Assembly: GCA_021292105.1 (NCBI GenBank)
Contig: CM037869.1
Location: forward strand, 50,093,234-50,157,233
Length of the DNA: 64,000 bases
Direction: 5' to 3'
From: Anadara kagoshimensis
Lineage: Eukaryota > Mollusca > Bivalvia > Arcoida > Arcidae
The notes under the pieces were generated by a model. That model worked only from the letters and a program-made list of their open reading frames with translations, did not search any database and was not told the origin of the DNA. Each line of letters starts with the position of its first letter. Position 1 is the first letter of the stretch. Position numbers and translations under genes: made by a program. Of the stretch, positions 14,735-60,035 are shown one piece after another.

Positions 14735-14817
14735 ATGTCAGTAATTTTCGGAGCTTACCATCGTATGGCAAAGAAGAAGGAAATAGAGAACAAATTAAAA
14801 AGAAAGGCACAACAACA
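14735..14817 (+). CDS. Alternative first coding exon E1 (basic helical N-terminus)
   Basis: ATG at 14735 opens 27 codons plus two bases. It encodes MSVIFGAYHRM.. followed by a Lys/Glu-rich stretch ending ..KLKRKAQQ, with CA left to start a Gln codon. An in-frame TAA at 14723-14725 shows that this ATG is the first available start. The exon ends at CA|GTAAGT, a canonical donor. Joined to the exon at 59911, the split codon becomes CAG (Gln) and the frame continues. E2 and E3 give related peptides (shared MS[VL][IL].. start, then [RK]-Q/K-K-x-[IV]-E-x-x-[LM]-K-[RK]-[RK]-A), the same phase and the same donor, so three chance ORFs are unlikely. The peptide is basic and probably helical, with no signal peptide. 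Function is not known. No clear TATA box is seen. The longer frame at 14656-15003 is in a different reading frame and is a shadow. Confidence 0.75.
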
Positions 14818-14869
14818 GTAAGTACAACAATTATAAATACCACGCTAAGTAGGAACTGTTTTACTAAAA

Positions 14870-16335
14870 TGACAAATTTTCTTTCAATTCTTTTCAGCAT
14901 TATAAACACCTGTTGTGGACTTGCACTGTGTTTTTTTTATTACAACTTGTTTTGTATTGCAGAAAGAACACTTGTTTTACAAGCAACATTAAGCAAGATC
15001 TAGCTTAAATTTGTTCGAACTTTTCATTTTATTAGGTGGGAACTATGTATATATATGTTACTAAAAATGTAAAAAAAAAAAAATAAAATAAATAAACTAA
15101 CCAAAAACCGTGTTTGTAGTTAGTGCAATTATTAGATAAGCAACATAACGTGGGATCTTCGATACCGAAATGTCAGAACTTTTTTCAACTCTTTTTAGCA
15201 TTTTAAATCTCTTATAAGTACATTTGCTTTTTTAACCAAATCGTTTTAATTTTCAGCTGATACACTACGTAAGATGGGATATAGGATACGAAAGTGTTAG
15301 AACTTTTCAACTCGTTAAGCAACATAGTCCCATTTGGCGATTTTGTGAACTATTTTTTTATTTTGTTGAAAAAACATCCCGTTTTTGCAGCAAGGAGAAT
15401 AATTTGACAAGCCATATCAAGTGGTATCTCGTTTACCAATTCTTTTAAACACCTTTTTATATAGCATTATAAGTCTTGTTTGGAGACATTTTGAAGCAAT
15501 CTGTTTTGTTTTGCAGCTAACCAATCGTTTTGTTTTGCAGTAATTACAATTATGTGGTAGACCACAGTGAAATCTAGAATCCCCAAAAATGTAAAAAAAA
15601 ACCAAAAAAAAAAAAAAAAAACCCAAAAAACAAAAAAACAAAAAACAAAAAACAAACCGTAAAGCAAAATTTAATAAAATTAGGTAGGATATAGGATACT
15701 AAAATGTCAAAATTCTTCAACTCTTTTCAGCATTATAAATGCCGTTTGCATTGTCGTTTTTATCAAACCGTATTGTTTTGCAGCAGGTTCAAGTATTTGA
15801 CAAAGAGAATTAAGTGAGATCTAGTTTACAATTTTGTTAGGAACTTTTTATCTCCTTTTAAGCATTATATTTTATTTAATACCTTTTTGAGACTGTACAT
15901 TGTTTTTCAAACCAAACCTTTTTATTTTGCAGTAAGTATAATTTTTTGACAAACCACATCAATAAAGAGGGATCTAAGATACCAATTGCAAAAATGGTTA
16001 AAGATTTCAAATCGTTTAAACATTGTAAATTCCTTTTGGCAAACTCTATAGATTGATTAGTTTGACTAAACCGTTTTATACAGCACTATACAGTTTCCTG
16101 TATTTGACATGCCACATTAAGTGGATTCAAATTTACAAAAAACATCATAACTTTTTCAACTCTTTTAGCATTCCTTTTGGTAATTCTGCGCATTGTGTTT
16201 TTAAACAAATAGTTTTAATTTGCAACAAGTACCACACAATTATTTATTTTTTGACAAGCCAAATTAACTAAGATCTAGATAAGTTACATTAAGTTAGATA
16301 TGACAAAGCATTTTAGCGTTAGGCACCCTTTTTGG
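14870..16335. repeat. Degenerate ~150-bp tandem array with acceptor-like motifs
   Basis: Roughly nine or ten diverged units follow E1. Each has a T-rich run ending in TTTTCAGCATTATAAA or GTTTTGCAG, then TTTGACAA(G/A)CCA.., then a (G)GATCTAG-type word (near 14985, 15148, 15275, 15420, 15680, 15815, 15970 and 16270). The T-tract plus CAG resembles a splice acceptor. No open frame is conserved between units. Poly-A and C-rich runs at 15590-15655 interrupt it; the phenylalanine-rich minus-strand frames there are shadows. Confidence 0.6.
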
Positions 16336-16339
16336 GAAC

Positions 16340-17290
16340 TTATGCATCGTTTTAAAAGCGATCTGTTTTGTTATACAACTACAGTTGAAACTCAATTAAT
16401 CTCCAAGTTTGTGCAGACAACGTTTAGCGTTATAAATGGGAGTTGTCAATACATTGAGTGAAGCTTAAAAAGAACAAAAACTGGTTTTGACACTTTGTGT
16501 TAATGAGCAAGGTGGCAAAGTTGTCGAGAGAAAATGTAACGAGATTTCGCAGTATTTATTAAAAGTAACGTAGCTTCCATCGCTATTGTCTGTTACACAG
16601 GATTTATGCATGCATTGTAACGCCACTTAGCCATATTGCATAAACGCGCACGACACGCCTATGTAAGGGATTTCACCGCATAAAGTTGTCGGCTACGTAT
16701 ATCCGGCGGCTCCATCGCACCGCTATGTGCATTACAGTGCATGACTCCGTGATATAAATAGAGAAACCGGAAAAAACGATTAGAATGAACCTTGTCTAAA
16801 TTAACAAACGATTAAATCTCTTTGTTTTAGATCAAAACGAAACTTCAGGAAGGTGCTTTTAACAAAGTATACAAAGTCCTTTGATCTCCTAAAAGAAAGT
16901 ATCCGGGTGAAACGCGTGGTCTTGTAATGGATTTGTTGGTTCAGTGGGTAAAACAAACAATACTAAACACACGTTTACAATTTAAGCATTACTCTCAATA
17001 TAAAATTTCTTTTCTCAGATTGACGTTATTTTTCGATGAACTGTAATTGTAAATAGTTCCGTAATGGTATATAAAAAGTTTTGATGCACTAACTTAACAA
17101 ATTGACCCAATTGATATTTCTTGTTTAATGCCTTGTCTTCAAACTGAAATTTTCAAAAAAAAAAAAAAAAAAAAAATAACAAAGAGGGAGTCGTTTGAGT
17201 TCTTAAATGTGAAAATGTCAAGATTTTTAGTTTTTCTATATAGACAAACATTTGCATGGTTGTAGATACTGAAACAGATGTTTGATTTTT
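16340..17290. other. Unassigned spacer
   Basis: No gene seen. A poly-A run of about 22 lies at 17155-17177. Moderate GC between 16560 and 16770 without a recognisable element. Confidence 0.35.
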
Positions 17291-17299
17291 AATTGTTCA

Positions 17300-17445
17300 T
17301 TATTTACCCTTTCGGAGCATCCAGCCTCACTTTCATGGCGGACGTTCACGTGTTCAACCTAACTTGTCAGTTTCAAATTTTAATTTGGCTTCTGGATAGT
17401 GATTCGAACATGGATTGGTATGTTAGTTTTTGATCACCAAGGTCT
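17300..17445 (+). repeat. Family C copy
   Basis: TTACCCTTTCGGAGCATCCA, CTCACTTTCATGGCGGACG, CTAACTTGTCAGTTTCAAA and GTGATTCGAACATGGATTGG match the family C order in plus orientation. Confidence 0.7.
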
Positions 17446-17774
17446 GAACGGCGACACTGTAAAATATTAAACATAAACCGCTTCTCGATTCAGAAGTCGT
17501 CGGAAAAATATCAGACAGCAAAAGCAAAGGCTTATATATAATTTAACATTTAGACTTAATTGATGACGGTTTGCAGTGATAAAACATGATTTCGGTAATA
17601 AATTGCAATAATATTAATATTGTTAATGCAATGTAACAATTTCAAAGAGAAATATTCATAGCACAAAAACGTACAAGTTTTAAAAATCGAGTTGAAATCA
17701 GATGAATGACATTTTATCGAGAATTTTGGTATCTCGTGAATAAACATAATCTTTTCTTAATCTTAAGTTAATTA

Positions 17775-18120
17775 AACCACTGCTGTAGATAAGTTGGTAG
17801 AGTGCTCGCTCCGTAAGTGAGAGGTCGTGGGTTTGATCCCCGGGCGGGCCTGACCCAAGAATTGATAGTGGGTAGTGACTGTTCTTTCGCCAAGCACTCG
17901 GCATTACGAAATGAAAACCACAGTTCTTTTGGATGGGTCCTAAAATAAACGAGGTCCCGTGTTACGGTGTGCTTGGCACGATGAAGAACGTTAACCCTGC
18001 TGTATAATGTCACCAGCGCAACGCACAGGCAAACTTTCTGCACTTTTGACTACAGCAGGCGACGTCTCGATATAAGTAAAATATTCTTGACTAGGGCGTT
18101 AAACACAATTACTCAACTCA
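17775..18120 (+). mobile_element. SINE-1 copy with best-preserved tRNA-like head
   Basis: Box A-like TAAGTTGGTAGAGTG (about 17790) and box B GGGTTTGATCCCC (about 17830) are spaced as in a tRNA, followed by GGGCCTGACCCAAG. The core reads TGTTCTTTCGCCAAGCACTC and CCGTGTTACGGTGTGCTTGG. The tail is CGATATAAGTAAAATATTC then TTGACTAGGGCG, ending in an AATTACTCAACTCAACT run. The overlapping minus-strand frames (17698-18043) are shadows. Confidence 0.85.
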
Positions 18121-18187
18121 ACTCTTTAGTTAATTACACATGTACTTATATCATATTTATACTTTTGAATCCCCATTTTAGTATATA

Positions 18188-18353
18188 ATAGTCAAATCGG
18201 TCTATAAAGGCCACCTAATGGAACCAGTAAAAGTGACCTTTATGGGCAGGTGGTCTTTATAAACAGGTTCAAATAATATGAACAAAGAACAATTGGAATA
18301 CAATCTACTGGCCTTATATAGGGGTGGCCTTTAAGGCAGGTTTGATTGTACAA
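18188..18353. mobile_element. Family B MITE
   Basis: Left AGTCAAATCGGTCTATAAAG, right TTTAAGGCAGGTTTGATTGT. The interior is reversed relative to the copies at 2.8 and 13 kb. Confidence 0.8.
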
Positions 18354-18355
18354 CT

Positions 18356-19025
18356 ATTTTGGATAATTTTTCAGTTTTGGACACTTAACAAAAAAAATCC
18401 GTTTCTTGGTCTCGGAAAGTTTCAAACTACAACACCGAACACAATTGGTCTCCAGTGTACATAAAATTCGCCCCTTGTACAATATGTTGACATTATTATA
18501 ACGTTTATCATAACGTGTTTATCATTATTTACTAATATTATTCCTCAGAAATATGTTTTTACTGAAAACCATTATAAACACCCCGGACAATATAATTGTA
18601 TTTAAGGCCAGAGCTCCGGGCCGATCGTTATATAAATTATCTCCCCTGATGAGACGTTGTTCCCGTGGGAGCCTCGGTCCCCATGTCATTTTTGGGCTGA
18701 CTGCCTAGTCCATAATCTGCCATATGGCCCCAAAGCCCCCTAAGAATTTGTTATGTATAGCTACTAATATAAAATCATCCACATTTGAGCATGAATCATT
18801 GATAGTAACATTCGTATGTTGTCAAAACAGAAGATTTTAAGAGACTAGAAAATTGATAGATCTAAAGACGAGTTTTTTTTATATTTAGTGTTCTGGTCGT
18901 AAATGCCAGCAATTTTGTACTTTGGATGCGTGCATTTGAAATCTTTTTTTAGTTTTTTTTGTAGTCATATAAGCTATTAAATATTGATTTACCAGAATTT
19001 GTGCCCTTGATAAAAAACATTTAAT
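18356..19025. other. Unassigned spacer
   Basis: A GC-richer block at 18590-18740 (AGAGCTCCGGGCCGATCG.., CCCGTGGGAGCCTCGGTCC) stands out from its AT-rich surroundings, but I cannot assign it to a gene or element. Confidence 0.35.
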
Positions 19026-19032
19026 AACATAT

Positions 19033-19383
19033 CAAGGGCGTAGCTGAGCATACGCACATACGACTATGCGTAAGTTAATTTTGTCAAATATCATATTTAA
19101 AAATGTTAAAAATTATTATTTGGCAGCTATATTTAAAAAAAACCTTGAAACTGAAACTATCATAATGAACAAGACGATTTATGCATATGAATCAATGTAC
19201 AATTCAGTGGTCGTTTGAATTTCGTTTTGAAGTTTAGTCGAAAAAATTTGCAGATAAGGGTCGAAATTCATGGAAAACGCATCATTTTTGATGTATTTTT
19301 TCATGCCCCAATACCCCTAGAAAAACGACACATTTTTAGTGTTTACAGTGCGTGATTTACCAACATGCTCAGCTACGCCCCTG
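19033..19383. mobile_element. Family G foldback element
   Basis: The left AAGGGCGTAGCTGAGCAT is mirrored at the right by ATGCTCAGCTACGCCCC. The interior is AT-rich with no ORF; the frame at 19365-19649 starts in the right arm and is probably not coding. Confidence 0.65.
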
Positions 19384-19661
19384 CATATGGTACATTACGT
19401 ATGGAGAACACAGGTATTAACACCGTCAACATTGTTATGTGGCAAACATGCAAAGTTTATGGTTTAACTGCAAATCCTAAAACTACCCGTGTATTGCGTG
19501 GATCCAACAATTCTTATTACATATCAATGTTGTTTGCATCTGATAATAAACATATAACAAAAAGTTGTTATGTATTTCGTTTTCCTGTGAGTACATACTG
19601 TTTACTTCTATCCGTCGTTCTTTCCAACCAATTTGTTTTCTTGTTTTAGTAAAAACTAAAC

Positions 19662-19910
19662 ACTTATTATACCCCCGCTTAAAAAGTGGGGGTATATAGT
19701 GATAGGGGTGTCCGTCCGTCCTTCCGTTACACCTTAGGGTACCTATCTCTTATCCGCAACTCCTCCTAAACCTTTCAATGGATTTTCATGAAACTTTCAC
19801 ACAATCTTTGTGATATAATGCACCTCCTATTTTAAAAAAAGCGGGGGGGGGGGGGTTGTTGGTATGTTTTATGAGCTTGTGGCTCACAGTTTTTCTAGTT
19901 TTATTTTCAA
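19662..19910 (+). repeat. Family H repeat
   Basis: ATACCCCCGCTTAAAAAGTG, ACTATATA complement, GTCCGTCCGTCC, CACCTTAGGGTACCTATCTC, TTTTCATGAAACTTTCACAC and GAGCTTGTGGCTCACAG occur in this order. The same sequence occurs reversed at 60590-60868. It contains a G homopolymer at about 19844. Confidence 0.8.
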
Positions 19911-20888: not shown

Positions 20889-20914
20889 TAGCAGTTACGA
20901 GCTTAAATTACCTA

Positions 20915-30949: not shown

Positions 30950-33900
30950 AACAATACATTTCAGAAACGTTCGATGTTGAACTTAGAAATAAGGCTAAAG
31001 AATTCCTACCCCATTAGTTCATTATTCAGACATTTCTTGCCGGTCTTTCTTCCTAGTTTTAGTCAATGTTTGAAAAACCTGTTTTAAAAATTACAAATAC
31101 ACGTGTGGATGGGTAAAGGCATTAGAAAGACAGGTTTAAAGGCAGCAAAACAAAATGGGGGGGGGATTAAATTTGTAGCTTAAGGTATTTTTTCCAGGTA
31201 GATATTATTTTCCTCATTTTTGTAAAAACATTTCTGGTTCACACTATGACAAATGTATACTGGAAAGGGGGGAATTTTCGGGTGGGTGAAATTTTGCTTA
31301 TTTCGCGCTGACGATTATACCGCGAAAATTTTACCCACGCGAAAATGTCTACCATACAGGTTACTCTATCACATATATAGTATATACACCCATTAATATT
31401 GGTTACGCGAAAATTACACCCACGCGAAATGCGAGATTTAAAAAATCGCGAAAGTTTTACTCCGCGAAAATAATCCCCTTTACAGTACTTGGTTGAATGA
31501 GGTTTTACGTCTTAGTCAAAACTATTTCACGTACATCGAGGCACCACCAGCTATAGATAAAATGACAGAATAGTATATAGTCAGGGCATTGTGGTTCCTT
31601 AGATTGCCATGCCTATCATGACAAAGGGAGCGGTTTTAAGGTGTCTTCCCAGGCAATCAGTGAATAATTACTAATATTCAAAAATAAAAAATAATAAAAG
31701 TACATATATATGTTTGGAAATAAACATTGCTTAATTGTCCAATAATAGAGTTTGAATAAGTGCGATTTTTGTACTTGGAAAAAGACCAAAGTATTCCTAC
31801 CTCATTATAACAGGATAAAATTCCACACAAACTATTTTTACATTTTTGACGGGCTTTCTTAATGGTTTTAGATGATGTTTGACTCGTTATACAAGTTACA
31901 CGTACATGGTGTATTACGGTAATGGGACAAACGTGTTTGTATTTACACGTGTGAATGGATAAACGCATTAAAAATGACCGGTTTAAAGTTAGCAAAACAA
32001 AAATGGCTAAAACTTATTTGCATTTGTAAAAGTACATATATATGTCTCGAAATAAACATTGCTTAATTATCAAACAATAGAGTTGGGCAAAGTTCAATTT
32101 GGGTACTTGGAAAAAAGGTCAAAGTATTTCCGGCATAAAAGTCCACACAATCACTCTACAGCTCATACAATTTTTGGCGGGTTTTTTTCCTGGTGTTATT
32201 AAATGTTTGAAATCTCGTTATACAAGTTACATATATACGGTGAATTACGGTAATGGAGAAAACTTGTTTGTATTTACACGTATGAATGGATAAATGCGTG
32301 CCATGCCTACCGTGACATGGGAAGCGGTTTTAAGGTCTCTTCCAAGGCAATAAGTGAATAATTACTCGTATTGATATATAAAACAAAACTAAAAGTACAC
32401 ATTTATGTTCTGAAATAAACATTGTATTCCTACCTCATTAAAACAGCATAAAAGTCCACACAAACACTCTACAATTTATACATTTCTTGTTGGGCTTTTT
32501 TCGTGGTCCTTGTCAATGGAATGGCAGACATTTTGACCTTTACAGGGCGATCAGGGCAAGGTCATGTAGGGTTCTTTCGCTTGCCATGCCCAGCGTGACT
32601 AGGAAAGCGGTTTTGAGGTCTCTTTCCAGACAATGAATAACTACTAATATTCAAATATAAAAGAAAACTAAAAGTACACATATATGCATGAAGAAAACAT
32701 TGCTTTATTTTGCAATAATAGAGGTTGGAAAAGTTCGATTTTGGTACTTGGAAAAAAGGTCAAATATTCCTATCCCATTAAAAACAGGCCAAAGTATTCC
32801 TGGGATAAAAGTTCCCACAAACACTCTACAGTTCATACAATTCTTGGCGGATTTTCTTCCTGGTGTTATTCAATGTTTAAAATCTCGTTATACAAGTTAC
32901 ACATATACGGTGTATTACGGTAATGGAGAAAACTTGTTTGTATTTTCACGTTTGAATGGATAAGCACATTGAAATAGAACCGGTCTGAAGTTAGCAAAAC
33001 AAAATGGGGAACATTGTTTACATTTGTAGCTAAGGGTATGTTTTAAAGGTAGATATTATTTTCCTCATTTTTGTTAAACATTACAGGTTCACACTATAAC
33101 AAATGTATAATTGGTTGAATGAGGTTTTACGTCCTAGTCAAAACTATGTCACTTACATCGAAGCATCACCAGCTATAGATAAAATGGCAGAATTTTTATC
33201 TTTGCAGTATAGTCAGGACATTGTGCAGGGAGGGTTCCTTAGATTGTCATGCCTATCATGACGAGGGAAGTAGTTCTAAGGTCTCTTCCCAGGCAATCAG
33301 TAAATAATTATTTATATTCAAATACAAAACAAAACTAAAAGGACTCATATATGTCTAGAAATAAACATTGCTCAATTGTCCAACAATAAAGTTTGGAAAA
33401 GTTCGACTTTGGTACTTGGAAATAAGGCCAAAGTATTCCTACCTCATTATAACAGGATAAAAGTCCACACAAACACTCTATAATTCTTACATTTTTGGCG
33501 GGCTTTCTTAATGATTTTAATCGATGTTTGAAATCTCATTATACAAGTTACACGTACACGGTGTATTACGGTAATGGGAAAAACTTGTTTTGTATTTTCA
33601 CGTGTGAATAGATAAACGCATTAGAAAGGACCGGTCTGAAGATAGAAAAACAAAATGGCTAAAATTTGTTTGCATTTGTAGCTAAGGGTATGTTTTCAAG
33701 GTAGACAATATTTTCCTCATTTTCGTGAAACATAACAGGTTCACACTATAATAAATGTATAATTGAATGAATGAGGTTTTACATCTTGGTCAAAACTATA
33801 TCACTTACACCAAAACATCGCTAGCTATAAATAAAATTGCAGAAAATTTTACCTCTGTAGTACGCTCAGGGTAGTGTGCAGGGAGGGTTTTTTAGATTGT

Positions 33901-34295
33901 CATGCCTATCATGACAAAGGAAGCGGTTTTAAGGTCTCTTCCCAGGCAATCAGTGAATAATTACTAATATTCAAATATAAAACAAAACTTAAAGTACATA
34001 CGACTATATATGTCTGGAAATAAACATCGCTTAATTGTCCAACAATAGAGTTTAAAAAAGTTCGCTTTTGATACTTAGGGAAACAAGGCCAAAATATTCC
34101 GAGGATAAAAGTACTCACAAACACTCTACAGTTCATGCAATTCTTGGCGGGTTTTCTTCCTGGTGTTAATAAATGTTTGAAATCTCGTTATACAAGTTAC
34201 ACATATACGGTGAATTACGGTAATGGAAAAAACTTGTTTGCATTTTCACGTGTGAATGGATAAACGCATTGAAAAGAACCGATCTGAAGACAGAA
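30950..34295. repeat. ~650-bp tandem array ending upstream of E2
   Basis: The word GCAAAACAAAATGG and its variants recurs at 31143, 31992, 32993, 33643 and 34292. The last two intervals are about 650 bp, while 849 holds an extra MITE and 1001 holds partial subunits. Each full unit contains AAATGTATAATTGGTTGAAT, a reversed SINE-1 tail (CACTTACATCGA.., CACCAGCTATAGATAAAAT), TTCCCAGGCAATCAGTGAAT, ATTGCTTAATTGTCCAACAA and CGTTATACAAGTTACAC, then GTGTATTACGGTAATGG. Small frames (31678-34136) are non-conserved shadows. Confidence 0.85.
31258..31488. mobile_element. CGCGAAAA-rich MITE inside the tandem array
   Basis: Left TACTGGAAAGGGGGGAATTT..CG and right CGAAAATAATCCCCTTTACA then GTA are inverted, with several CGCGAAAA/TTTTCGCG words inside. 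Only this unit of the array has it, so it inserted after the array formed. Confidence 0.75.
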
Positions 34296-34361
34296 GAACA
34301 AAACTGGTCGATTTCTTTTTACCTTTTTTACAGCACTAATGAGTATTTTCTAATTAAACCG

Positions 34362-34640: not shown

Positions 34641-34723
34641 ATGTCTCTTTTACTTGGGTCTTACTGCAAGCATTCGAGGCAGAAAGCTATAGAAAAAGCG
34701 ATGAAACGCAGAGCTGAAAAACA
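34641..34723 (+). CDS. Alternative first coding exon E2 (basic helical N-terminus)
   Basis: ATG at 34641 follows an in-frame TGA at 34623-34625. Twenty-seven codons plus CA encode MSLLLGSYCKHS.. then RQKAIEKAMKRRAEK, and the exon ends at CA|GTAAGT. Spliced to 59911 the split codon is CAG and the frame runs into REKRQKAMDAV.... It is the same length and phase as E1, and its basic half is almost the same as that of E3 ([RK]QKA[IV]EKA[ML]K[RK]RAEK). The shared exon itself opens with a similar RQKAM word, so the modules may share ancestry or form one continuous helix. No signal peptide or membrane segment. It lies about 350 bp beyond a 3.3-kb tandem array. Product unknown; see the shared exon. 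Confidence 0.8.
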
Positions 34724-35530
34724 GTAAGTTAATACAAAACTCTATTTTGTTCTTATATCTTTTTTGCGATCATCGGTTAGTATTAGTATTTCGTTAACTC
34801 TTGGTTCATGAAATTCAATTTGTTATTAAAACTAGTAATTTTGATTTAGGATATAAAATTTTGACTTAAATGACTTTTATAATTTTTTGATAATAATAAA
34901 TATTATTTTATTTTGAGCAAATATTAAAAAAGATATTACAAAATATACAAAATTCATTTTTGTTAATCAACTGGTTTAGTCAACGCAGTTTTTAATTAGC
35001 TTAGTCCATAAAGAGTTCAACAAATGCCGACTACTTGTAACCTTGTATCTAGAAAATAGTAGAATTTTACCAAAACGGATGAAACTCAATACTGAGAGTT
35101 TTTACTGTTTTTTAGAACTGTCAAATATTCTATAATTTCGTATTATTGCGATTTTACGACCAACAGTACATTTAACGTGTCGAACGGGAAAGTACCGATT
35201 TGCTAATTTAAATAATTTGGAACTTGTAAGTTCCAAAGTTTTTACTTTGCTCATGGATTGTGATTCGGACATGAATTAGTATATTTGTTTTTGATTAACT
35301 AATTATAAGCTTGTTATATAACGTTTTAGTCTAATGATATCAGATTGTAAACATTTTAGACAAAAAGCAATAACAAGAACAATTATAAAAAGTTTTCTAA
35401 AATAAAATGTCGTGTTGGTAATAAACTATTGTAAAAAATGAATTTCTTGGACATGAAAAATGTTTTTGAATTTCGTATACAGAAACTTTTTTTAAATGGT
35501 TTCATCTAAATATAAAACTGATTCAAATTA
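34724..35530. other. Intron sequence, AT-rich
   Basis: Follows the E2 donor. A family C fragment is at about 35225-35300 (AAGTTCCAAAGTTTTTACTT, GTGATTCGGACATGAATTAG); otherwise nothing named. Confidence 0.4.
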
Positions 35531-46788: not shown

Positions 46789-47035
46789 TGATAAGTTTGA
46801 TGTCTCTGTGTCCAGGATTGCCCTGGATATTTTTTACGTCTCATAGTTCCATGTTCCTTTCACACAATTTTGATTACACACGTGACGGGTGTAACTAGCT
46901 AAACAGGAGGTACTTGCCCTTCCGGAGCACCCGGCCTCACTTTCCTAGTGGATGTTCACGTAACTTGTCAGTTCCAATGTTTTTACTTTGCTTCTGGATT
47001 GTGATTCGGACATAGATGAGTATGTTTGTTTTTTA
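46789..47035 (+). repeat. Family C copy, long form
   Basis: Starts GATAAGTTTGATGTCTCTGT then GTCCAGGATTGCCCTGG, central GCCCTTCCGGAGCACCCGGC, ends GTTTGTTTTTTATTG. It pairs with the reversed copy at 47505-47772. Confidence 0.85.
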
Positions 47036-47399: not shown

Positions 47400-47915
47400 A
47401 ATGGTAAAAACTATTGTCTAAATGTGGTAGTTAAAATTCAAAATTCCTCAAAAACCAAGGTATAATTCCTTCAGGCAAAGTTTTTTCTTTGCTGATATTG
47501 GTAAGTAAAAACAAACATACTTATCCATGTCCGAATCACAATCCAGAAGCAAAGTAAAAACTCCGGAACTAAGAAGTTAGGTTAGACACGTGAACTTCCA
47601 CCAGGGAAGTTAGGCCGGGTGCTCCGCAAGGTTAAGCACCTCCTGTTTAGCTAGCTACACCCGCCACGTGTGTAATCAAAATTGTGTGAAAGGAACATGC
47701 AACTATGAGACGTCAAATATATCAAGGGCAATCCTGGACACAGAGACATTAAACTTATCAAACCTATATATTTGATCCTTTTTGTTTCTTTTCAACATCT
47801 TGAGTAAAAAAGTTCTGGTTTCATAATTTTTGTCCAAGCACTACTGATACAGAATTGTATTCGGAAACGGCCGACTAGTGCTGTAAAATTAAAACGGTTA
47901 TTATATGTTATTTCG
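47400..47915 (+). repeat. Family D copy split by a family C copy
   Basis: Left part 47400-47484 (CTCAAAAACCAAGGTATAAT..TTCAGGCAAAG) and right part 47773-47915 (TTGATCCTTTTTG..GGCCGACTAGTGCTGTAAA) flank a reversed family C insertion. Confidence 0.75.
47505..47772 (-). repeat. Family C copy, long form, inserted in family D
   Basis: CCATGTCCGAATCACAATCC, GTTAGGTTAGACACGTGAAC, CTCCTGTTTAGCTAGCTACA and ATCCTGGACACAGAGACATT. With 46789-47035 it forms an inverted repeat of about 250-bp arms and about 470-bp spacer. Confidence 0.8.
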
Positions 47916-48605: not shown

Positions 48606-48849
48606 TTAAATCACAAGATATGTTTACACATTTATGTCACAGTTATTTAGACCGATTGTGTCCTTTAAGAAATTGATTAACATGTATAGATTATCTAAGA
48701 ATAATGGACTTGATTATAGCTCTTCAATATTAAAAGTTTAATTGACCTTTCTTCCTAATGTACAATGACAATCTAGATCATGACACCCAAATGAGCATTA
48801 ATTATATTCAATCCACGAACAATTGCATACAGCAATGGATTTTATATTA

Positions 48850-49150
48850 CATATTATACCAGTTTTATATTTACAGCACTAGACGGCCGTTTCGGAATAC
48901 AATACCTCATCAGTAATGCTTGGACCAAAATTATGAAACCAAAATTATTTTGAAGATGTTGAAAAGTTACCCAAAGGACCAAAATATATTTTACCAAATT
49001 AAGCTAAGGGAATACTTTGCATGAGGAAGTATACCTTAGTTTTTGAGAAATTTCAAATTTTAACTTGCAGGAAATTTAGATCATTATATTATTTTTCTGA
49101 CAATAACACGAAATTATTGCCTACTGAGTTTGTGATATCCTCGGGGCACT
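48850..49150 (-). repeat. Family D copy, near full length
   Basis: From ATTTACAGCACTAGACGGCC through ACCCAAAGGACCAAAATATA to GCAGGAAATTTAGATCATTA and GTTTGTGATATCCTCGGGGC. This is one of the most complete copies in the window. Confidence 0.85.
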
Positions 49151-49294: not shown

Positions 49295-50390
49295 TATGAT
49301 GAGAAAACAAATATATAGAAATGATAATAGTTTTCTTTAAAAAATCTGTATTTTTAAAATTCCACTTTATTTACAATTTAGTGAAAATAAAAGTACTTTT
49401 TAGAACATGATTTCTATTTTTTTTATAGATTACATAAGTTGCAGTTTGTTTAGAATGTTTCAATGAATATAAATCTTAAAATAATGACGTGATTATGTAA
49501 AAGTAAACTGGCTCTATTTGTTGTGTGCCAAAAGACAAATCTAAATTGCTTTATTTGCTTTTAAACTTTTAAAAGTTCACCTTTTTAGAAATCTTTACAA
49601 GATTTCGTATTGATTCCGAGATGGCATACATTGTACTCCAGCAAGAGGATTAATTACAAGATATATAAAAGTAATGGACTGAAAATATGTTTTTAATTCA
49701 TTATTTTTTTAGTAAAAAGAAATGTTTAGAAACATGACTTCTGATCGATTCCAAGAGTACATACATTTATTGTATTTCACAATTACCAGTCTCCGTTATG
49801 ACATGGTGACTGATGAAATAGAATTTTCCATTAAATAAACAAATAAACTTGTTCAGTTAAATATAAATATGATTTCATACACCGTAAACTAGACCGACCA
49901 TGTTACTTACACTGGAATTAATCTATAGATTGTGAATAATGAACGTAATTAAGGTACTTGTATATTAACCGCTGACACATTGGATATTTTGTCAGCAAGG
50001 CCAGTATTGAACAAATAATGAACTTAATTTTACATTTTCTAGGTAGATTTTAATGCGTACTATACACAAGGCACACAATAAAAGTAGCTAGCTAGAATCC
50101 ACGCTTGAGGAACACATTCTAAAGACTCCTCTGTTTTACAACATTCTGTGCAAACATACATCCTATACATTTATTTGCAATATAAGGTATATAGTGTATA
50201 AGTTATACAGGTAGACTGTTATATGTACCTGACATTGATTATATCGATCAGGTAGTTAAGGTTGCTATGCGACATTCTCTCCTCCAGCTATAGTGAGTAA
50301 TAAGGAACCACCGGCAGGTAATCATATGACTAGTGAGATTTAAGTAAGGAAGGGATTAAATATTTCTGATTGTGCCAAATTATACCTTCA
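49295..50390. other. AT-rich sequence upstream of E3
   Basis: No named repeat. The 300 bp before E3 are the presumed promoter region if E3 is a first exon; I see no convincing TATA box. Confidence 0.3.
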
Positions 50391-50393
50391 AAA

Positions 50394-50473
50394 ATGTCCG
50401 TAATCCTGACAGCATGCCGACATTCGAAACAAAAAGCTGTAGAAAAAGCGTTAAAGAAGAGAGCAGAAAAACA
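50394..50473 (+). CDS. Alternative first coding exon E3 (basic helical N-terminus)
   Basis: ATG at 50394 follows an in-frame TGA at 50367-50369. Twenty-six codons plus CA encode MSVILTACRHSK.. then QKAVEKALKKRAEK, ending at CA|GTGAGT. It is one residue shorter than E1 and E2, with the gap best placed near His-Ser-Lys. The basic half differs from E2 only by conservative changes, mostly Lys/Arg or Ile/Val, which suggests selection on the protein rather than chance. Spliced to 59911 (9.4 kb downstream) the codon CAG is restored. If it is a first exon, transcription starts within the preceding few hundred bases. Without splicing, translation stops at once (CAG TGA). Function unknown. Confidence 0.8.
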
Positions 50474-51410
50474 GTGAGTAATCTGACAATCTTCAACTTT
50501 ATCAATTAATTAAGGGATATTGGCTGATCTTGACGTTTTTATGAAATCTATAAAACATTAATTCCATATATGGTGATAGTTGATATTTGTAATCGTTCCT
50601 TAATTGTGAATGAATGTAGGTGTCATTTTGACTCTATTCAAATGTCGCGAATTTAAAAGCTTAGTTTAGTTTCAGATAATTGAAAAAAGATAAAATATTT
50701 ATTTTAATGGCCGTCTTATGCTGAAAAATTAAGAAGGGTTTACTATAAATACCAAAAATAATATACAAATTATGACAAAATTATAATTCAAGCGATACAA
50801 GTAAGAACTCAACTTGGTAAGATGACCATTTCAAAGAAAATTTATTTATTTACACAAGTCACAATTTTACACGTGGCCGATGGAGCTATTTCAACAAAAG
50901 GTGCTTACCACGAAACACCCGGCCTCACTTCTTTGGTTAATTTCATGTGTAAAACTTTGTAAAATTAAAACTGCTTTAAAGCTTGTAATGGTTAGCTTAC
51001 CACTTTGAGTTCGTATTTGCATCGTTGTGACATAATTTGTATTTGTATATTATTGTTGTTATTAATGGTCTAGGCCATTAAAATAATTTGCGAGCATTCT
51101 CGATTTATGCTTAGCTTTTCGGATTGCGCTTTTTAAAAGAACAGATGTTTGTAAATTTACCAGTTTATATTTAACAGTATTTAGAGTTCTTATAAGAGTG
51201 AAGAAGGAAAAGTTGACATATCTGTAAAACATTAGAGGTACACATTAAATAAGTTTGAATTACAGAAAGTATATGTTTTATTTACTTATAGATTGACATT
51301 CTATCTACCTGTTTCGACAGGTAATTTGTGATATGTAATTATAATTAAAACCTTTTTGGGTTACTGGAACGTCACATCCGGTTCTGTAAAATCTGATCTA
51401 GTAGTCTTTG
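50474..51410. other. Intron sequence
   Basis: Follows the E3 donor. A family C fragment at 50880-50945 (GGTGCTTACCACGAAACACC, GGCCTCACTTCTTTGG); nothing else named. Confidence 0.4.
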
Positions 51411-52984: not shown

Positions 52985-53228
52985 GATTGCTAAAAATCGT
53001 AAAAACTTTCAAGTTAAAATTTGAAATTCCTCAAAAACTAAGGTATACTCCCTCGTGCAAAGCATTTCCTTAGCTTAATTTGGTAATATATATTTTGGTC
53101 CTTTGGGTAGCATTTCAAAATCTTCTAAATAATTTCGGTTTCATAATTTTGGTCCAAGCACTACTGATGAGGAATTGTATTCCGAAACGGCCGTCTAGTG
53201 ATGTGAATATAAAACTGGTATAATATAT
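52985..53228 (+). repeat. Family D copy
   Basis: CTCAAAAACTAAGGTATACT, CCTTTGGGTAGCATTTCAAA and ACGGCCGTCTAGTGATGTG. Confidence 0.85.
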
Positions 53229-53394
53229 AATTTCAAGAGATAGCAGCTGCCTTAATGCTGTCAAGATCGAGATAAATCTAACGCGGACCGCGAATGAGGT
53301 GTCCACTTGGTACATATTTGTTAGCTTAATGTTTTGTTAGCTTAATATTAAACTTAAACTTTCGACAGGCCTGTACTGTACCTGAAAAATGCAA
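53229..53394. mobile_element. Family A right half abutting family D
   Basis: AGATAGCAGCTGCC.., then ATTAAACTTAAACTTTCGAC and AGGCCTGTACTGTA. It begins exactly where family D ends. Confidence 0.7.
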
Positions 53395-54025: not shown

Positions 54026-54059
54026 ATAATTGTTGTACTGTTGTTGTTGTTGGTGGGGT

Positions 54060-54900: not shown

Positions 54901-54945
<45 letters not shown>
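54901..54945. repeat. Poly-A tract (45 A)
   Basis: Uninterrupted run; the minus-strand frame with a long Phe run at 54748-55074 is an artefact of it. Confidence 0.95.
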
Positions 54946-54946
<1 letters not shown>

Positions 54947-55432
54947 GCATTCGAAACTAACATAACGTAATTCAAATGAGAGATAATGAACATATTCGGA
55001 TGCGAAATTTGCAAGTTTGTGAAGAAAAATGGAGTTTCTAACGCTTTACATGCCGTATAAATACCATTTATCAAAAGAGAGTGTTTATCCCGTGAAATCC
55101 GGGTCTAATTATATATAATCTTAAGTTTTGTGCATGAACAGAACATTACACCGTCCTGTACAGACCTTGTCGGAGAAGCGAATTAGTCAAACGAAACTCG
55201 GAAAAGAAACGCAAACGGGTGAAGAAGAACGGAATTTAAAAAATCACAATTTTTGGTAGAATTTCCGTTTACGTAGGCTGTCTGGCAAAGAACAAAAACT
55301 CCATTAACGTAAAACTACTGTATTGGAATATTGAATTCCGATAACATTAATCATACATGTATGTCTTCTCATAAATTTTCAGAGAATAATTTCAAAATGA
55401 TGATTGCATTTAGCCTTACAGAGAACCTTGTC

Positions 55433-55610
55433 GGGGCCTCTGTGACCGCGTGGTCTAAAGCGCACGCTTACGGATCACTGCGCCTCTCACTGCCTAGGTT
55501 CGAATCCAGTCGGGACAGAGCCTAGTGTCGGAAAGTCTTTTAGTAAAACGTTGACCGAAGGTTCGCGAATTTCTCCCAAGACTACAGTTTTCTCCACCTT
55601 TCCCAAATTG
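55433..55610 (+). mobile_element. SINE-3 copy (Leu/Ser-type tRNA head)
   Basis: CTGTGACCGCGTGGTCTAAA then GCGC is a box A region of a long-variable-arm tRNA, followed by GCCTAGGTTCGAATCCAGTC (box B). The tail is TTCTCCCAAGACTACAGTTT then TCTCCACC. About 80 nt of head is tRNA-like but has lost clean stem pairing. Confidence 0.65.
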
Positions 55611-56445
55611 ACCGCCTAGACATAAGTGAAAAAAATCATGTATAAATATTTCAGCGATAGTCATTGATGATGAAGTCTTAGAAAATTCCTCCACCATTAA
55701 TAAACTGACAGCCTCGAAATGAGTGACAAAATCATGTATTAATATTTCAACGATTGTCATAGATGATGAAACCCGACAAAATCAAAATCTTCAGATTCCT
55801 CCGCCATTAATAAACTGACAGCCTCGAAATGAGTGACAAAATCATGTATTAATATTTCAACGATTGTCATAGATGATGAAACCCGACAAAATCAAAATCT
55901 TCAGATTCCTCCGCCATTAATAAACTGACAGCCTCGAAATGAGTGACAAATTCATGTATTAATATTTCAACGATTGTCATAGATGATGAAAACCGAAAAA
56001 TAAAAATCTTCGGATTCCTCCACCATTAATAAACTGACAGCCTCGAAATATTTGACAAAATCATGTATAAATATTTCAGCGATAGGCATAGATGATGGAA
56101 CCCGACAAAATCAAAATCTTCAGATTCCTCCGCCATTGATAAACTTACAGCCTCGAAATGAGTGACAAATTCATGTATAAATATTTCAGTGATAGGCATA
56201 GATAAGATGCAAATCGAGAAAATCAAAATCTTCAGATTCCTCCGCCATTTATAAACTGACAGCCTCGAAATGAGTGACAAATTCATGTATAAATATTTCA
56301 GCGATAGGCATAGATGATGAAACCCGACAAAATCAAAATCTTCAGATTCCTCCACCATTAATAAACTGACAGCCTCGAAATATGTGATAAATTCATGTAT
56401 AAATATTTCAGCGATTGTCATCAATGATGAAAACCGAGAAAATCT
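55611..56445. repeat. 110-bp minisatellite, about eight units
   Basis: ACAGCCTCGAAAT recurs at 55708, 55818, 55928, 56037, 56147, 56259 and 56369 (spacing 109-112), preceded by a partial unit near 55612. Units at 55707-55927 are almost identical. Shared words: TCATGTATTAATATTTCAAC / TATAAATATTTCAGCGAT, CATAGATGATGAAACCCGAC and AAATCTTCAGATTCCTCC. The frames on the minus strand (up to 132 codons) come from the absence of stops in the unit and are not supported as a gene. Confidence 0.92.
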
Positions 56446-56481
56446 TTATGTATACAATATAATATATATTATATAAATACA

Positions 56482-56714
56482 CGGTACTGACCTGTCGAAA
56501 GTTTGACATCCAGCTAACAAAAATGGAGTCGCAGCTCGTGTGCCGAGTGTCCAAGATATGAACAGCTACTAGCTAAAAAGCTGCCAGGAGATAGATAGCA
56601 GCTACCAAAAAGCTGTCAATGTATAGATATCGAGGGGCAGATACAGATATAAGCAGCAGATTTGGTATTAATTCGTTAGCTAAGTGTTAAACTTTCGACA
56701 GGCCTGTACCGTAC
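56482..56714. mobile_element. Family A MITE, well preserved
   Basis: Left TGACCTGTCGAAAGTTTGAC, interior AGATAGATAGCAGCTACC, right AAGTGTTAAACTTTCGACAG then GCCTGTACCGTA. Confidence 0.88.
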
Positions 56715-56715
56715 A

Positions 56716-57235
56716 CTCCTGACGAGGAAATCAATTTTTAGTGTTATTGTATATTATACTGACGATATATACTTGATATTGTGTTGTTATAGATTTTTAT
56801 TATCAGTAAACATTGTTTTATTTTACTTCTCTAATCGCTCAATACACCTTTATAAAATCAAGTATCTTTAGAAATATGAAATCAATTTTTCACATAGAAT
56901 TTTAAACCTTCTCTATAGTGTCAAGTCGACTAATTCAAACAATTATTTGTCGATTAGGTGTTTTACCTAGGTGAGTCGCCAAATGTTAACATGTTTAAAA
57001 CTGTTAATCGAACGGCAGAGAAAAAAAGCTTGCGAAATGTTTCTAAAGTGAGAAAAAATGTCTTAGTTTTCTAGGCATTGTATCCAAAAATTTAAAGTAG
57101 TTGAAAATCTACTAGCTTAATGCTCAATTGAGCTGGGCGCTCTAGAGCGCTTCGCCTTATTTCAATTCGTTTTCTCACAGTCGTTGGTTATATGGTTATA
57201 TCTTGGGCACTCCGATATCTTCCATCATTCACGTG
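56716..57235. other. Unassigned spacer
   Basis: No supported gene or repeat. A short GC-rich palindrome-like GCGCTCTAGAGCGC is at about 57138. Confidence 0.3.
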
Positions 57236-57239
57236 ATCA

Positions 57240-57605
57240 CTGCTATAGCTTAATTAGTTAAGCGTTCGTACTGTATGTGAGAGGTTGATGGGCTCAAGCC
57301 ACGGTCGGGTCTGACCAAGACTAGAAAACAGGTAGTGTCTGTTCAAATCAAAGCACTCGGCAATAATTTGAAATGAAAGTAACAAGGGTCCTTTGGAAGA
57401 AACATTACAAACCGATGCCCCATGCATATGTCACGGCTGGCGTGTTATGTTAAAGAAACCTTCTTGCACATTGCCCTAAGCACACTGCCATGGTTAAAGT
57501 TTCATTTACTTCACCATTAGCTGGTGATGTCTCGATATAAGTTAAATATTCTTGACTGGGACGGGAAAACCGCATTTAATCAATCAATCAATCAATAAAT
57601 CAATC
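57240..57605 (+). mobile_element. SINE-1 copy
   Basis: Head ATAGCTTAATTAGTTAAGCG..GGTTGATGGGCTCAAGCC, GGTCGGGTCTGACCAAGAC, tail GATGTCTCGATATAAGTTAA then ATATTCTTGACTGGGACG. It ends in (AATC)n: AATCAATCAATCAATAAATC. Confidence 0.85.
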
Positions 57606-57629
57606 ATCTCTGAACTGACAGACTGAATT

Positions 57630-57885
57630 AGCAGCAACCTTTGAAGCGCGCTTAGAGCAATTTGCAGGGAGTTCTTTAGCGTGACACGCTTACTATGACA
57701 CTGGCCATCGGTTTATAAGGTTTCTCACGAAAGACCCATTGACTTTCATTTTTAAATGCCAAATAATTCGCGACAGATCAATAACAACTTTTTATACTGC
57801 GATTTTAACCTTTAGCTGGTGACGTCGCGATATAAGGACATATTTTTGACGGGGGAAACGTAAAACCCTCCACTCAACGACATTT
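57630..57885 (+). mobile_element. SINE-1 fragments, rearranged
   Basis: Core complement pieces (GCAGGGAGTTCTTTAGCGTG) and a forward tail (GCTGGTGACGTCGCGATATA) lie close together. Confidence 0.6.
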
Positions 57886-57984
57886 TTTAATTGTCAAATA
57901 TTACATATTCACTCCACATATTTCATTTCCTTCGCTTCTTTACAACTATTTGTAAGCTTTTAATTGTTCTAGCTATTGTGTAGC

Positions 57985-58047
57985 GGTCTGGGTAGCTTAG
58001 TGGTAGAGCAGTCGCCTATAGTGCGGGTTCGATCCCTAATCCGACCC
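57985..58047 (+). pseudogene. Truncated tRNA-like sequence
   Basis: GGTCTGGGTAGCTTAGTGGT then AGAGCA and GGGTTCGATCCC form an intact D arm (box A) and T arm (box B). The ends GGTCTGG and TCCGACC can pair at six of seven positions, counting one G-T pair. The anticodon arm is mostly missing (about 63 nt instead of 72), so it cannot be a working tRNA. It is probably a SINE head or tRNA pseudogene. Confidence 0.65.
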
Positions 58048-58049
58048 TG

Positions 58050-58765
58050 CATTTTCTTCTTTATGTTGCAATTGTCAAGTGCGTTGTTTTGTTCAACATG
58101 TGCAACATTCAATTAACTTCGATATAGTTAAGAACGAAAAAACCTCAGTATTTTAAAAAATGTAATCGATGGAAGCACAGACCAAACGCCTGATCATGAG
58201 GACTGAGAATATCTGAGAATCCAAATTCTAATTAGGAATGTTTCAATGCTAGATCGATCTTTACCCTACTTATTTTTGTTAAATAGTTTTAAGAATGGTT
58301 TTACTGCACCAAGGAAATAATCATAAAATTATGTTGTAAATTGGAAAATTTTGCGTCAGTTAATTCGCGCGAATCTAATTTCAAAGTTTCGTGTAGTTGT
58401 AATTTCACGTTGTTAAATGGTGGACAAGCGCACATGCAAGTGGATTTAATCTGAATTAAATTTTAGCAAGGACTTTATTTTCGGGTCTTGAAAATAAAAT
58501 CACAGCAAGACTTTTCCTTTACACAGTTGTAATTTGAGTTTCATATCTTAAGACTTTCTCAGTTGCCCACATGTTTATTAACACCAGTTTATGAATTGTT
58601 TAATTTGTGTTTTTTGATTTTTATTTTCTTTTATTTATTCATAAATATAGGTTTTTTGGCATTTTTAATTTTTTTTATCCCCTGTCTTTTAGAGAAAGAG
58701 GGGGGGGGGGGGGGGTCTTAAAATAGAGTTTTCGTTAGTCCGTCCGTCAGAAATTGCTGTCTGCT
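58050..58765. other. Unassigned spacer
   Basis: No supported feature except a G homopolymer of about 17 at 58700-58717, next to a TCCGTCCGTC word that recalls family H. Confidence 0.35.
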
Positions 58766-58774
58766 TTAATTTTC

Positions 58775-58908
58775 CAAAACCACGGGCACTCGCCCTCACT
58801 TCCCCGATGGAAGTTCACGTGTATAACCTAACTTGTCAGTTCCAAAGTTTTTACTTTGCTTCTGGATTGTGATTCGGACATGGATTAGTATGTTTGTTTT
58901 TTATTGCA
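58775..58908 (+). repeat. Family C copy
   Basis: CTCACTTCCCCGATGGAAGT, CTAACTTGTCAGTTCCAAAG and GTGATTCGGACATGGATTAG. Confidence 0.8.
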
Positions 58909-59199
58909 AAGTAACGACATAGATATGAGATGTACATATCGTTAATCCGAGTTGTATTGCTCATTTTCTTTGGAGTTATGACCCTTTAAACATAAGTGCA
59001 AATCAAAAAAAAAAAAAAAAAACATACTAGCGCAGGGTCCTAATTCACTGATTTGGACTGTTGATAATTGCAAATGTCCGCATTAGTAAATCATTATTGA
59101 CAGTGTGCCAAACTCAGAATCGCACATCGAGTTTAAAAAAAAAATAATTAAAAAATTAAATTAGTAAAATTTACCTTCATTTGCTTTGAACTTACAGAA

Positions 59200-59467
59200 G
59201 AGAATCAAAAGTTTAATATTGAGGTAACGAAATTGGTCGAAGCTTGGCGACCTGCCGAAGGTTTAATGTTGAGCTAACGACATAATACTAATCTTGACTG
59301 CCAAGTGGCCAAGCTATGGATAGCCGCTGGCCCAAATTCTCTCAAGAGGTAGAGGAAAATTGCGGAGATCTTGCTAACGAGGGGTCGGGTCGGGTCGAGA
59401 TGAGCTTCCGATCCGGAACTAATTCGTTAGCTTAGTATTAAACTTTCGAGAAGTCTGTACTGTGTAT
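59200..59467. mobile_element. Family A MITE with duplicated left end
   Basis: Two left-end-like words (AAAGTTTAATATTGAGGTAA at 59208, GAAGGTTTAATGTTGAGCTA at 59257) and one right end (TTAGTATTAAACTTTCGAGA). GGGTCGGGTCGGGTCGAG is a short internal expansion. Confidence 0.8.
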
Positions 59468-59478
59468 TGGTACGCAAC

Positions 59479-59479
<1 letters not shown>

Positions 59480-59509
<30 letters not shown>
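59480..59509. repeat. Poly-A tract (30 A)
   Basis: Uninterrupted A run about 400 bp upstream of the shared exon. Confidence 0.95.
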
Positions 59510-59510
<1 letters not shown>

Positions 59511-59679
59511 AAGGGGATTCTGCCAATGACTAGTGTTTGGTGCACAACGCCACAGATTGGTTGTTTTTAATCACAAGGGCCCAAAATACCAGAGTATTTA
59601 TCTTGCACTTTCCAATATATTCCAACAAAATTTCGACCTGAGATAAAAACCTTGGGATATTAAAAATAGAAATTTTGAT

Positions 59680-59866
59680 TAACAGTCAAACCAGTTTATA
59701 AAGGTCACCCAAGTAAACCAGCAAAAGTGGCTTTTTATGAACAAGTTACCCTTATATACAGGTTCAAAGAACATGAACAAAGAGCAATGGGGATAATATT
59801 TTGCTGGCCTTTAAAATCATATTGCCTTAAATAGAGGTGGTCTTTAAGACAAGTTCGACTGTATCT
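59680..59866. mobile_element. Family B MITE
   Basis: Left CAGTCAAACCAGTTTATAAA, right TTTAAGACAAGTTCGACTGT. It ends only about 45 bp before the acceptor of the shared exon. Confidence 0.8.
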
Positions 59867-59910
59867 GATTTCTACTATTGTTGATTAACGATTTATTTTT
59901 TCTGTTTCAG

Positions 59911-60035
59911 GAGAGAAAAGAGACAGAAAGCTATGGATGCCGTACATGAACAGATAGGTCCACTCCCAACAGAATCTCCGGCAACAAGAATCTGGACTTT
60001 TCTTCTAGACGGAAATCCATACAGTATTGTCTTTT
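59911..60035 (+). CDS. Shared internal exon, possible voltage-gated K+ channel pre-S1 region
   Basis: TTTTTTCTGTTTCAG at 59896-59910 is a strong acceptor. The 125-nt exon gives one base to the split codon, then 41 codons and one base, and ends at TTTT|GTGAGT. The peptide starts REKRQKAMDAV and continues ..GPLPTESPATRIWTFLLDG, then NPYSIVF. It accepts E1, E2 or E3 in frame. The R-I-W-x-[FL]-[LF]..[DN]-P-Y-S pattern, preceded by PLP nine residues before Trp, resembles the linker immediately before the first membrane helix of Shaker/Shaw-type Kv channels as I remember them. In those proteins a T1 domain of about 100 residues precedes it; nothing like T1 is encoded in this window. The match is short with a two-residue insertion, so another membrane protein is possible. 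Coding exon 0.8; Kv identity about 0.3. Confidence 0.78.

What the first reader, a model, noticed from the sequence alone, without database searches (positions are those of the whole stretch)
14735..60035. Three homologous alternative first exons feeding one shared exon
E1, E2 and E3 each start with an ATG behind an in-frame stop, encode related basic 26-27-residue N-termini, and end at consensus donors in phase 2. All restore a Gln codon when joined to the acceptor at 59911. Similar peptide, length, phase, donor and strand over 36 kb point to duplicated first exons with separate promoters, letting one gene swap its N-terminus. E2 and E3 differ mainly by conservative changes.
Basis: partly seen in the sequence, partly recalled or inferred. 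Interest (0 to 1): 0.85.

Follow-up and report, generated by a model that had tools for sequence, protein, structure and literature searches.

The report
Three swappable starts for FAIM-like gene
An unnamed animal genome carries a small gene related to the apoptosis inhibitor FAIM that can probably begin with any of three old, duplicated start segments, so that one protein core may be made with three different basic heads.

Summary
E1 (14735-14817), E2 (34641-34723) and E3 (50394-50473) are related ATG exons with phase-2 donors that fit the acceptor at 59911. Read in the host genome, the shared exon continues into two exons beyond the window (window-frame 70451-70500, 75563-75709). The product, 133-134 aa, is a basic head plus the C-terminal half of FAIM1 (Pfam PF06905, about 1e-16). 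Its last two introns match, read by eye, those of a separate FAIM1 locus.

An inverted paralogous copy of the gene lies about 0.85 Mb away. Over 568 coding bases the copies differ at 7, all synonymous. A decayed extra copy of the exon (35334) drifts freely. E2 and E3 show dN 0.25, dS 1.9. So the exons look real, old and constrained as protein.

Separate promoters are unproven: E1 and E3 have acceptor-like sites upstream, so a noncoding leader exon is possible. No RNA could be examined. E1's kinship with E2 and E3 is weaker than theirs with each other. I file it as a Pcdh/UGT1-like bank of variable first exons on a FAIM-C-domain gene: a new variant of a known kind.

The parts
14735..14817 (+). 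E1: alternative N-terminal coding exon, 27 codons + 2 nt, donor GTAAGT
   Evidence: copy B differs by 4 substitutions, all synonymous
34641..34723 (+). E2: alternative N-terminal coding exon, 27 codons + 2 nt, donor GTAAGT
   Evidence: copy B differs by 1 synonymous substitution
50394..50473 (+). E3: alternative N-terminal coding exon, 26 codons + 2 nt, donor GTGAGT
   Evidence: identical in copy B, 80/80
59911..60035 (+). Shared exon: basic stretch QREKRQKAMDAVHEQ, linker and the start of the FAIM C-terminal domain; ends in phase 1
   Evidence: acceptor rank 2 of 3231; identical in copy B, 125/125; FAIM1 match when joined to the two downstream exons
35334..35405 (+). Decayed copy of the N-terminal exon (MISDCKHFRQKAI..., 23 codons then stop, no donor); frame differs in copy B
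   Evidence: tblastn with E2, E=0.006; 35320-35410: 83/93 with indels
14691..14734 (+). Possible 5'UTR part of E1 behind an acceptor-like site; leader resembles that of E3
   Evidence: acceptor rank 23 of 3231; E1/E3 leaders alike at 40, 60 and 100 nt, not at 300 nt
50288..50393 (+). Possible 5'UTR part of E3 behind a strong acceptor-like site
   Evidence: acceptor rank 3 of 3231; 50260-50485 is 225/226 identical in copy B

Best explanation
This is one gene with three interchangeable N-terminal coding exons. A transcript that starts near, or is spliced into, E1, E2 or E3 takes its start codon from that exon and splices from its phase-2 donor over 9.4-45 kb to the common acceptor at 59911, then through two more exons beyond the window. 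Each product is a basic 27-28-residue head running into a shared basic stretch (QREKRQKAMDAVHEQ), followed by a single FAIM C-terminal domain. The exons arose by old duplication and are kept by purifying selection, with loss of at least one copy. The heads most likely choose partner, place or expression domain for an unchanged FAIM domain, as the extra N-terminus of vertebrate FAIM-L does. Shown: homology, frame, phase, synonymous-only divergence, FAIM domain. Inferred: the splicing itself, separate promoters, the role of the heads.
For: Frame: E2+59911-60035+70451-70500+75563-75709 is open to a stop, and so are the E1 and E3 forms. PF06905 FAIM1 at 9.5e-17 (E1 form), 1.1e-16 (E2), 9.6e-17 (E3), 61.5-61.7 bits against a cut-off of 22; PDB 2kd2 5.6e-16 and 2kw1 7.4e-15 (E2 form). 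Paralogue: 7 differences in 568 coding nt, 7 of 7 synonymous, P 8e-6 to 6e-5; E exons alone 5 of 5, P 2e-4 to 8e-4. E2/E3 dN 0.25, dS 1.9, while their flanks are no more alike than random pairs in the spans tested. One shared exon in the window, and in the genome only it and its copy in B. The extra copy decays. Pooled upstream flanks better conserved than downstream. FAIM1 elsewhere with the same last two intron positions and phases (splice sites read by eye). FAIM-L: 22 extra N-terminal residues, which the authors suggest may be essential for XIAP binding (PMC5628826, passages).
Against: No RNA evidence. The substitution rate in E1-E3 is not significantly below the flanks (5/246 vs 115/2925, P=0.085), and E1 alone shows no reduction (4/83 vs 50/964); the case for constraint is the synonymous pattern. 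Gene conversion patches make local divergence uneven. E1 is only weakly like E2 and E3. E1/E2 and E2/E3 leaders are not detectably alike. Acceptor-like sites before E1 and E3 speak against both being transcription-start exons. Exon 3's bounds were chosen among 7 combinations that keep the frame, by splice-site look and FAIM fit. Splice scores use recalled generic weights.
Confidence: 0.85

Rival explanations
1. One promoter upstream; E1, E2 and E3 are mutually exclusive second exons, each bringing its own ATG, chosen by splicing from a shared noncoding exon.
For: Strong acceptor-like site before E3 (rank 3 of 3231) and a fair one before E1 (rank 23), the E3 one inside a 225/226 conserved stretch. 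Splicing E1 or E2 into 50288 meets a stop within a few codons, so joint inclusion would be unproductive.
Against: No acceptor scoring above 0 within 200 nt before E2. The copies lie 16-20 kb apart, unlike tight mutually exclusive clusters (recalled). No common leader exon was identified.
Confidence: 0.22
2. Tandem whole-gene copies: each E exon once had its own downstream exons, of which only one set survives.
For: The region has been duplicated at least once (inverted copy B).
Against: No second copy of the shared exon in the window; in the genome only the copy in B. All five differences in the E exons are synonymous, which suggests a present use for each.
Confidence: 0.03
3. Only one or two of the exons are used today; the others are recently dead copies.
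For: A dead copy exists (35334), so death happens in this cluster. E1 carries the most substitutions (4/83) and shows no lower rate than its flanks.
Against: All 5 substitutions in the three exons are synonymous, and ATGs and donors are intact in both copies.
Confidence: 0.1
4. Chance resemblance of lysine-rich open frames in an AT-rich window.
For: The E1 core match alone is near the chance level, and E1/E3 is not found by tblastn.
Against: the joined frame leads into a FAIM domain; synonymous-only divergence.
Confidence: 0.01

Closest known systems
Multiple variable first exon clusters (protocadherin, UGT1, GCNT2)
   Same: Homologous first coding exons in a row on one strand, upstream of one common exon set, with a dead copy among them; birth-and-death history (PMC1885805, passages; its Fig. 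1 legend lists a pseudogene).
   Different: There each variable exon encodes a large part of the protein (UGT1: signal peptide and aglycone-recognition domain); here each encodes only a 27-28-residue basic head, in 3 seemingly live copies over 36 kb. Splicing and promoter use not shown here.
FAIM1 isoforms FAIM-S / FAIM-L
   Same: FAIM proteins that differ at the N-terminus through alternative splicing; FAIM-L has 22 extra residues (PMC5628826, passages).
   Different: Human FAIM-S has 179 residues, room for both FAIM halves; here the N-terminal half is missing and the heads are homologous duplicates. The passages seen do not say that the human N-terminal exons are duplicates of one another.
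FAIM1 locus of the same genome (C11:32597705-32603523)
   Same: Last two introns at the same position and phase (1, then 0), read by eye.
   Different: Has the N-terminal FAIM half (profile 1-113 in two overlapping matches; the last two exons matched our protein only at E=0.011 and 0.25 in the 30 kb searched). No E-like exon found there (best E=0.42). As assembled it shows a frame break.
Chelicerate sDscam 5' cassettes
   Same: An invertebrate case of duplicated 5' cassettes used through alternative promoters (PMC5775551, passages).
   Different: Cassettes of Ig-superfamily adhesion molecules, not of a FAIM-like protein.

Membership tests
Multiple variable first exons (Pcdh/UGT1 type) | Several homologous first coding exons on one strand, each with an ATG and one donor phase | tested here: met
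   weakest for E1
Multiple variable first exons (Pcdh/UGT1 type) | One common downstream exon set to which each can join in frame | tested here: met
   single shared exon in the window; open joined frame for all three
[quoted passage not shown]
   no RNA data on hand
Multiple variable first exons (Pcdh/UGT1 type) | A promoter before each variable exon | tested here: inconclusive
   pooled upstream flanks conserved, E2 not by substitutions; acceptor-like sites before E1 and E3
FAIM1 (PF06905) | Match above the curated cut-off | tested here: met
   61.5-61.7 bits vs 22 for all three forms
FAIM1 (PF06905) | Full two-half FAIM architecture | tested here: not met
   only profile positions 89-171 of 172 matched; none of the 5 genome-wide family matches puts the N-terminal half on C13 (a lower bound). 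Hence FAIM-C-domain relative, not canonical FAIM1
FAIM1 (PF06905) | Anti-apoptotic activity | not testable with these tools
   would need a bench test
Mutually exclusive cassette exons | A shared upstream exon and an acceptor on every alternative exon | tested here: inconclusive
   acceptor-like sites before E1 and E3, none scoring above 0 within 200 nt before E2

The most novel reading that the evidence does not exclude
In this lineage a FAIM gene lost its N-terminal half and turned its start into a protocadherin-style bank of old, interchangeable basic heads, each steering the same FAIM domain to a different partner, for instance different members of the inhibitor-of-apoptosis family that molluscs have expanded. 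That would be a modular apoptosis adaptor made by choice of first exon.
Probability: 0.12. Interest if true: 0.75.

Novelty: new variant of a known kind. Interest (0 to 1): 0.55.

Why it matters
Banks of homologous first exons are best known for large receptor or enzyme domains. Here the arrangement would swap a very short N-terminus on a single-domain, apoptosis-related protein, and three versions seem to have been kept since before a segmental duplication with about 6% divergence. It would let one ask why a short head is worth keeping in triplicate, and whether N-terminal choice steers FAIM outside vertebrates as in FAIM-L. The listings of my 10 paper searches showed no title or abstract start describing such a FAIM gene. 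Only asked for FAIM, one search listed 10 of 689 papers, and the library is open-access only.

Tried and rejected
Peptides of the first two exons alone found nothing meaningful in Pfam or PDB; the gene was named only after the host genome gave exons 3 and 4. Before that I considered ion-channel N-termini from recall; the FAIM match disposed of that. FAIM was recognised from recall in the output and then tested. More E-like exons: in 40 kb upstream, 60 kb downstream and 20 kb upstream of copy B the best tblastn hits were E=0.029 and 0.10 (both minus strand) and 0.22. I first took all of these as noise; on re-checking, the 0.10 hit is an exon-shaped candidate (see Noticed in passing). Genome-wide, E3+shared exon gave 7 matches: E2, E3 and the shared exon twice each, plus one on C8 at E=8.8. 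E1 DNA, E1 peptide and E2 DNA gave only copies A and B, apart from a C6 hit at E=4.3 for the peptide. tRNA and Rfam scans of the window: nothing. dS undefined for the E1 pairs. My first exon-candidate script used too high a donor threshold and gave 0 candidates; redone. The clam paper that names FAIM means FAIM2 (PMC3334963, passage). The Aplysia paper lists two FAIM genes (PMC9334734, passages); not followed up.
Full report
CHECK OF THE OBSERVATION. E1 is 14735-14817, E2 34641-34723, E3 50394-50473; each has an in-frame stop 12-27 nt before its ATG, ends in phase 2 at GTAAGT, GTAAGT or GTGAGT, and forms a Gln codon with the acceptor at 59911. With the junction Gln they encode 28, 28 and 27 residues. 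With one codon left out of E1 or E2 against E3, E2 and E3 share 18 of 27 residues, E1 and E3 12 of 27, E1 and E2 11 of 28. No shuffled peptide of 5000 reached any of the three pair scores. Within the window tblastn gives 6e-9 for E2/E3 and 3e-5 for E1/E2, but does not report E1/E3 at E<=10. ATG exons of this size and donor type occur three times on the plus strand, never on the minus strand, and 0.12 times per Markov-1 sequence, 1 of 200 having three. On the 20-residue core alone E1's resemblance is close to chance, and the E1 peptide does not retrieve E2 or E3 genome-wide; E1 therefore rests on the whole pattern and on the paralogue test below.

THE SHARED EXON. The acceptor at 59911 ranks 2 of 3231 AG sites on the plus strand with a generic, recalled weight matrix; the donor at 60035 is weak, rank 350 of 3700. 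The exon ranks 7 of 37 open candidates, 2 of 13 in phase 2. No second copy lies in the window. Its first residues (QREKRQKAMDAV) carry on the basic pattern of the heads.

THE GENE. The window is C13:50093234-50157233 of a 1.115-Gb genome in 36 contigs, unnamed. Downstream stretches show two further exons at window-frame 70451-70500 and 75563-75709, the latter ending at a stop. The E2 frame through them is open; 7 combinations of exon-3 bounds keep it open, and I chose the one with the best-looking splice sites and FAIM fit. All three forms read to the same stop. They match Pfam FAIM1 at 9.5e-17, 1.1e-16 and 9.6e-17, on profile positions 89-171 of 172, and the E2 form matches FAIM entries 2kd2 and 2kw1, chains of 94 and 89 residues, so a FAIM C-terminal domain has been solved on its own. 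The N-terminal FAIM half is absent. The family search lists 5 matches in the genome, with the N-terminal half only on C11. There the last exons have introns after the corresponding residues with the same phases, 1 and then 0, read by eye; those exons matched our protein only at E=0.011 and 0.25 in 30 kb. The C13 gene thus looks like a paralogue of the last part of FAIM1 with a new start.

THE PARALOGUE TEST. A second copy of the region lies inverted about 0.85 Mb away on C13. Aligned columns of the window, coding included, differ at 2517 of 42002 (6.0%; 23 chained pieces covering 43018 of 64000 bases). Coding differences: E1 4/83, E2 1/83, E3 0/80, shared exon 0/125, exon 3 0/50, exon 4 2/147; all 7 are synonymous and the proteins are identical in both copies. 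The chance of 7 of 7 is 8e-6 to 6e-5, and of 5 of 5 in the E exons 2e-4 to 8e-4, depending on transition weight. Against this, the rate in E1-E3 is about half that of their flanks but not significantly lower (5/246 vs 115/2925, P=0.085), and E1 alone is not lower (4/83 vs 50/964). Gene conversion patches exist: exon 3 sits in a stretch of 11.4 kb at 98.4%.

AGE. E2 and E3 differ by dN 0.25 and dS 1.9, far more than copies A and B differ from each other, and their flanks (40-300 nt upstream, 40 and 100 nt downstream) are no more alike than random pairs; the exon duplication therefore seems to predate the segmental one. A further copy, MISDCKHFRQKAI..., at 35334 lies about 0.6 kb after E2 (tblastn E=0.006; with E2, E3 or a 12-residue piece of E2 as query, 0 of 60 Markov windows reached its scores). 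It has no donor; in copy B it has indels and an earlier stop.

PROMOTERS. Pooled, the 600 nt upstream of the three exons differ between copies at 44/1800 with 0 gap columns, the 600 nt downstream at 89/1600 with 93 gap columns and 107 unaligned (P 2e-6). This comes from E1 and E3; for E2 substitutions are 26/600 upstream and 20/546 downstream. E1 and E3 share a leader of about 50 nt (P against random pairs 0.002 at 40 nt, 0 of at most 1000 at 60 nt, 0.008 at 100 nt, 0.17 at 300 nt); the other two pairs are not significant. But 50288, 106 nt before the E3 ATG, ranks 3 of 3231 as an acceptor and 14691, before E1, ranks 23, whereas nothing scores above 0 within 200 nt before E2. E1 and E3 may thus have an upstream noncoding exon. 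Splicing E1 or E2 into 50288 would meet a stop within a few codons, so joint use looks unproductive.

AN OPPOSITE-STRAND CANDIDATE. About 27.8 kb before E1, outside the window, C13:50080163-50080078 on the minus strand reads MSVILMAGRKKKSEEIKKRDMSCRKKIIR in an 86-nt ATG exon with a phase-2 GTAAGT donor. It resembles E3 (19 of 5000 shuffles as good), hardly E1 (674 of 5000) and not E2 (2276 of 5000); its leader resembles those of E1 (6 of 1000 random pairs as good) and E2 (11 of 1000), not E3 (469 of 1000). No relative of the shared exon or of exons 3-4 was found at E<=1 in the 40 kb around it, and no copy in the copy-B stretches held. The whole-genome search for it did not complete. It may be a further, inverted family member or an unrelated exon.

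MECHANISM. Most likely, transcripts begin at or are spliced into one of the three exons, and the resulting head stands where the FAIM N-terminal half is missing. In humans FAIM-L carries 22 extra N-terminal residues that the authors suggest may be essential for XIAP interaction (PMC5628826, passages), so N-terminal choice as a selector of partners has a precedent in this family. Which partner or place each head selects is inference. IAP genes are expanded in molluscs (PMC8917759, start of abstract in the listing), which motivates the novel reading but does not test it; that this genome is molluscan is itself unverified.

CLASSIFICATION. In layout it works like the variable-first-exon banks of protocadherin and UGT1 (PMC1885805, passages). 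Splicing could not be tested and promoters are inconclusive, so I call it a new variant of that kind. It is a FAIM-C-domain relative, not canonical FAIM1.

Noticed in passing
C13:50080163-50080078, minus strand (L010:6845-6930; about 13 kb before window base 1): An E-like exon on the opposite strand: ATG, MSVILMAGRKKKSEEIKK..., 86 nt, phase-2 GTAAGT donor. Resembles E3 (19 of 5000 shuffles as good) but hardly E1 or E2; no shared-exon relative found in the 40 kb around it. The genome search for it stayed unanswered.
   Followed up: partly
window 6764-64000 and beyond; C13:50962000-51051725: The gene region is present twice as an inverted segmental duplication about 0.85 Mb apart, 81-98% identical in the aligned pieces over 600 nt; its upstream end was not sought. 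A misplaced haplotype is not excluded.
   Followed up: partly
window-frame 63536-74892: An 11.4-kb stretch 98.4% identical between the two copies, and several 250-nt windows without difference (e.g. 8675, 37775, 48575, 62075), suggest patchy gene conversion.
   Followed up: no
C11:32598842-32599045: The FAIM1 locus shows a change of reading frame inside one stretch as assembled: sequencing error, an unrecognised intron or decay.
   Followed up: no
e.g. 47507-47759 / 62969-63221, 48846-49067 / 53010-53231, 46789-47033: Short interspersed repeats in both orientations, SINE-like by look only.
   Followed up: no
31486-34307; 55685-56444: Overlapping direct repeats of several hundred bases just upstream of E2, and a 110-nt tandem array of about 7 copies between E3 and the shared exon.
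   Followed up: no
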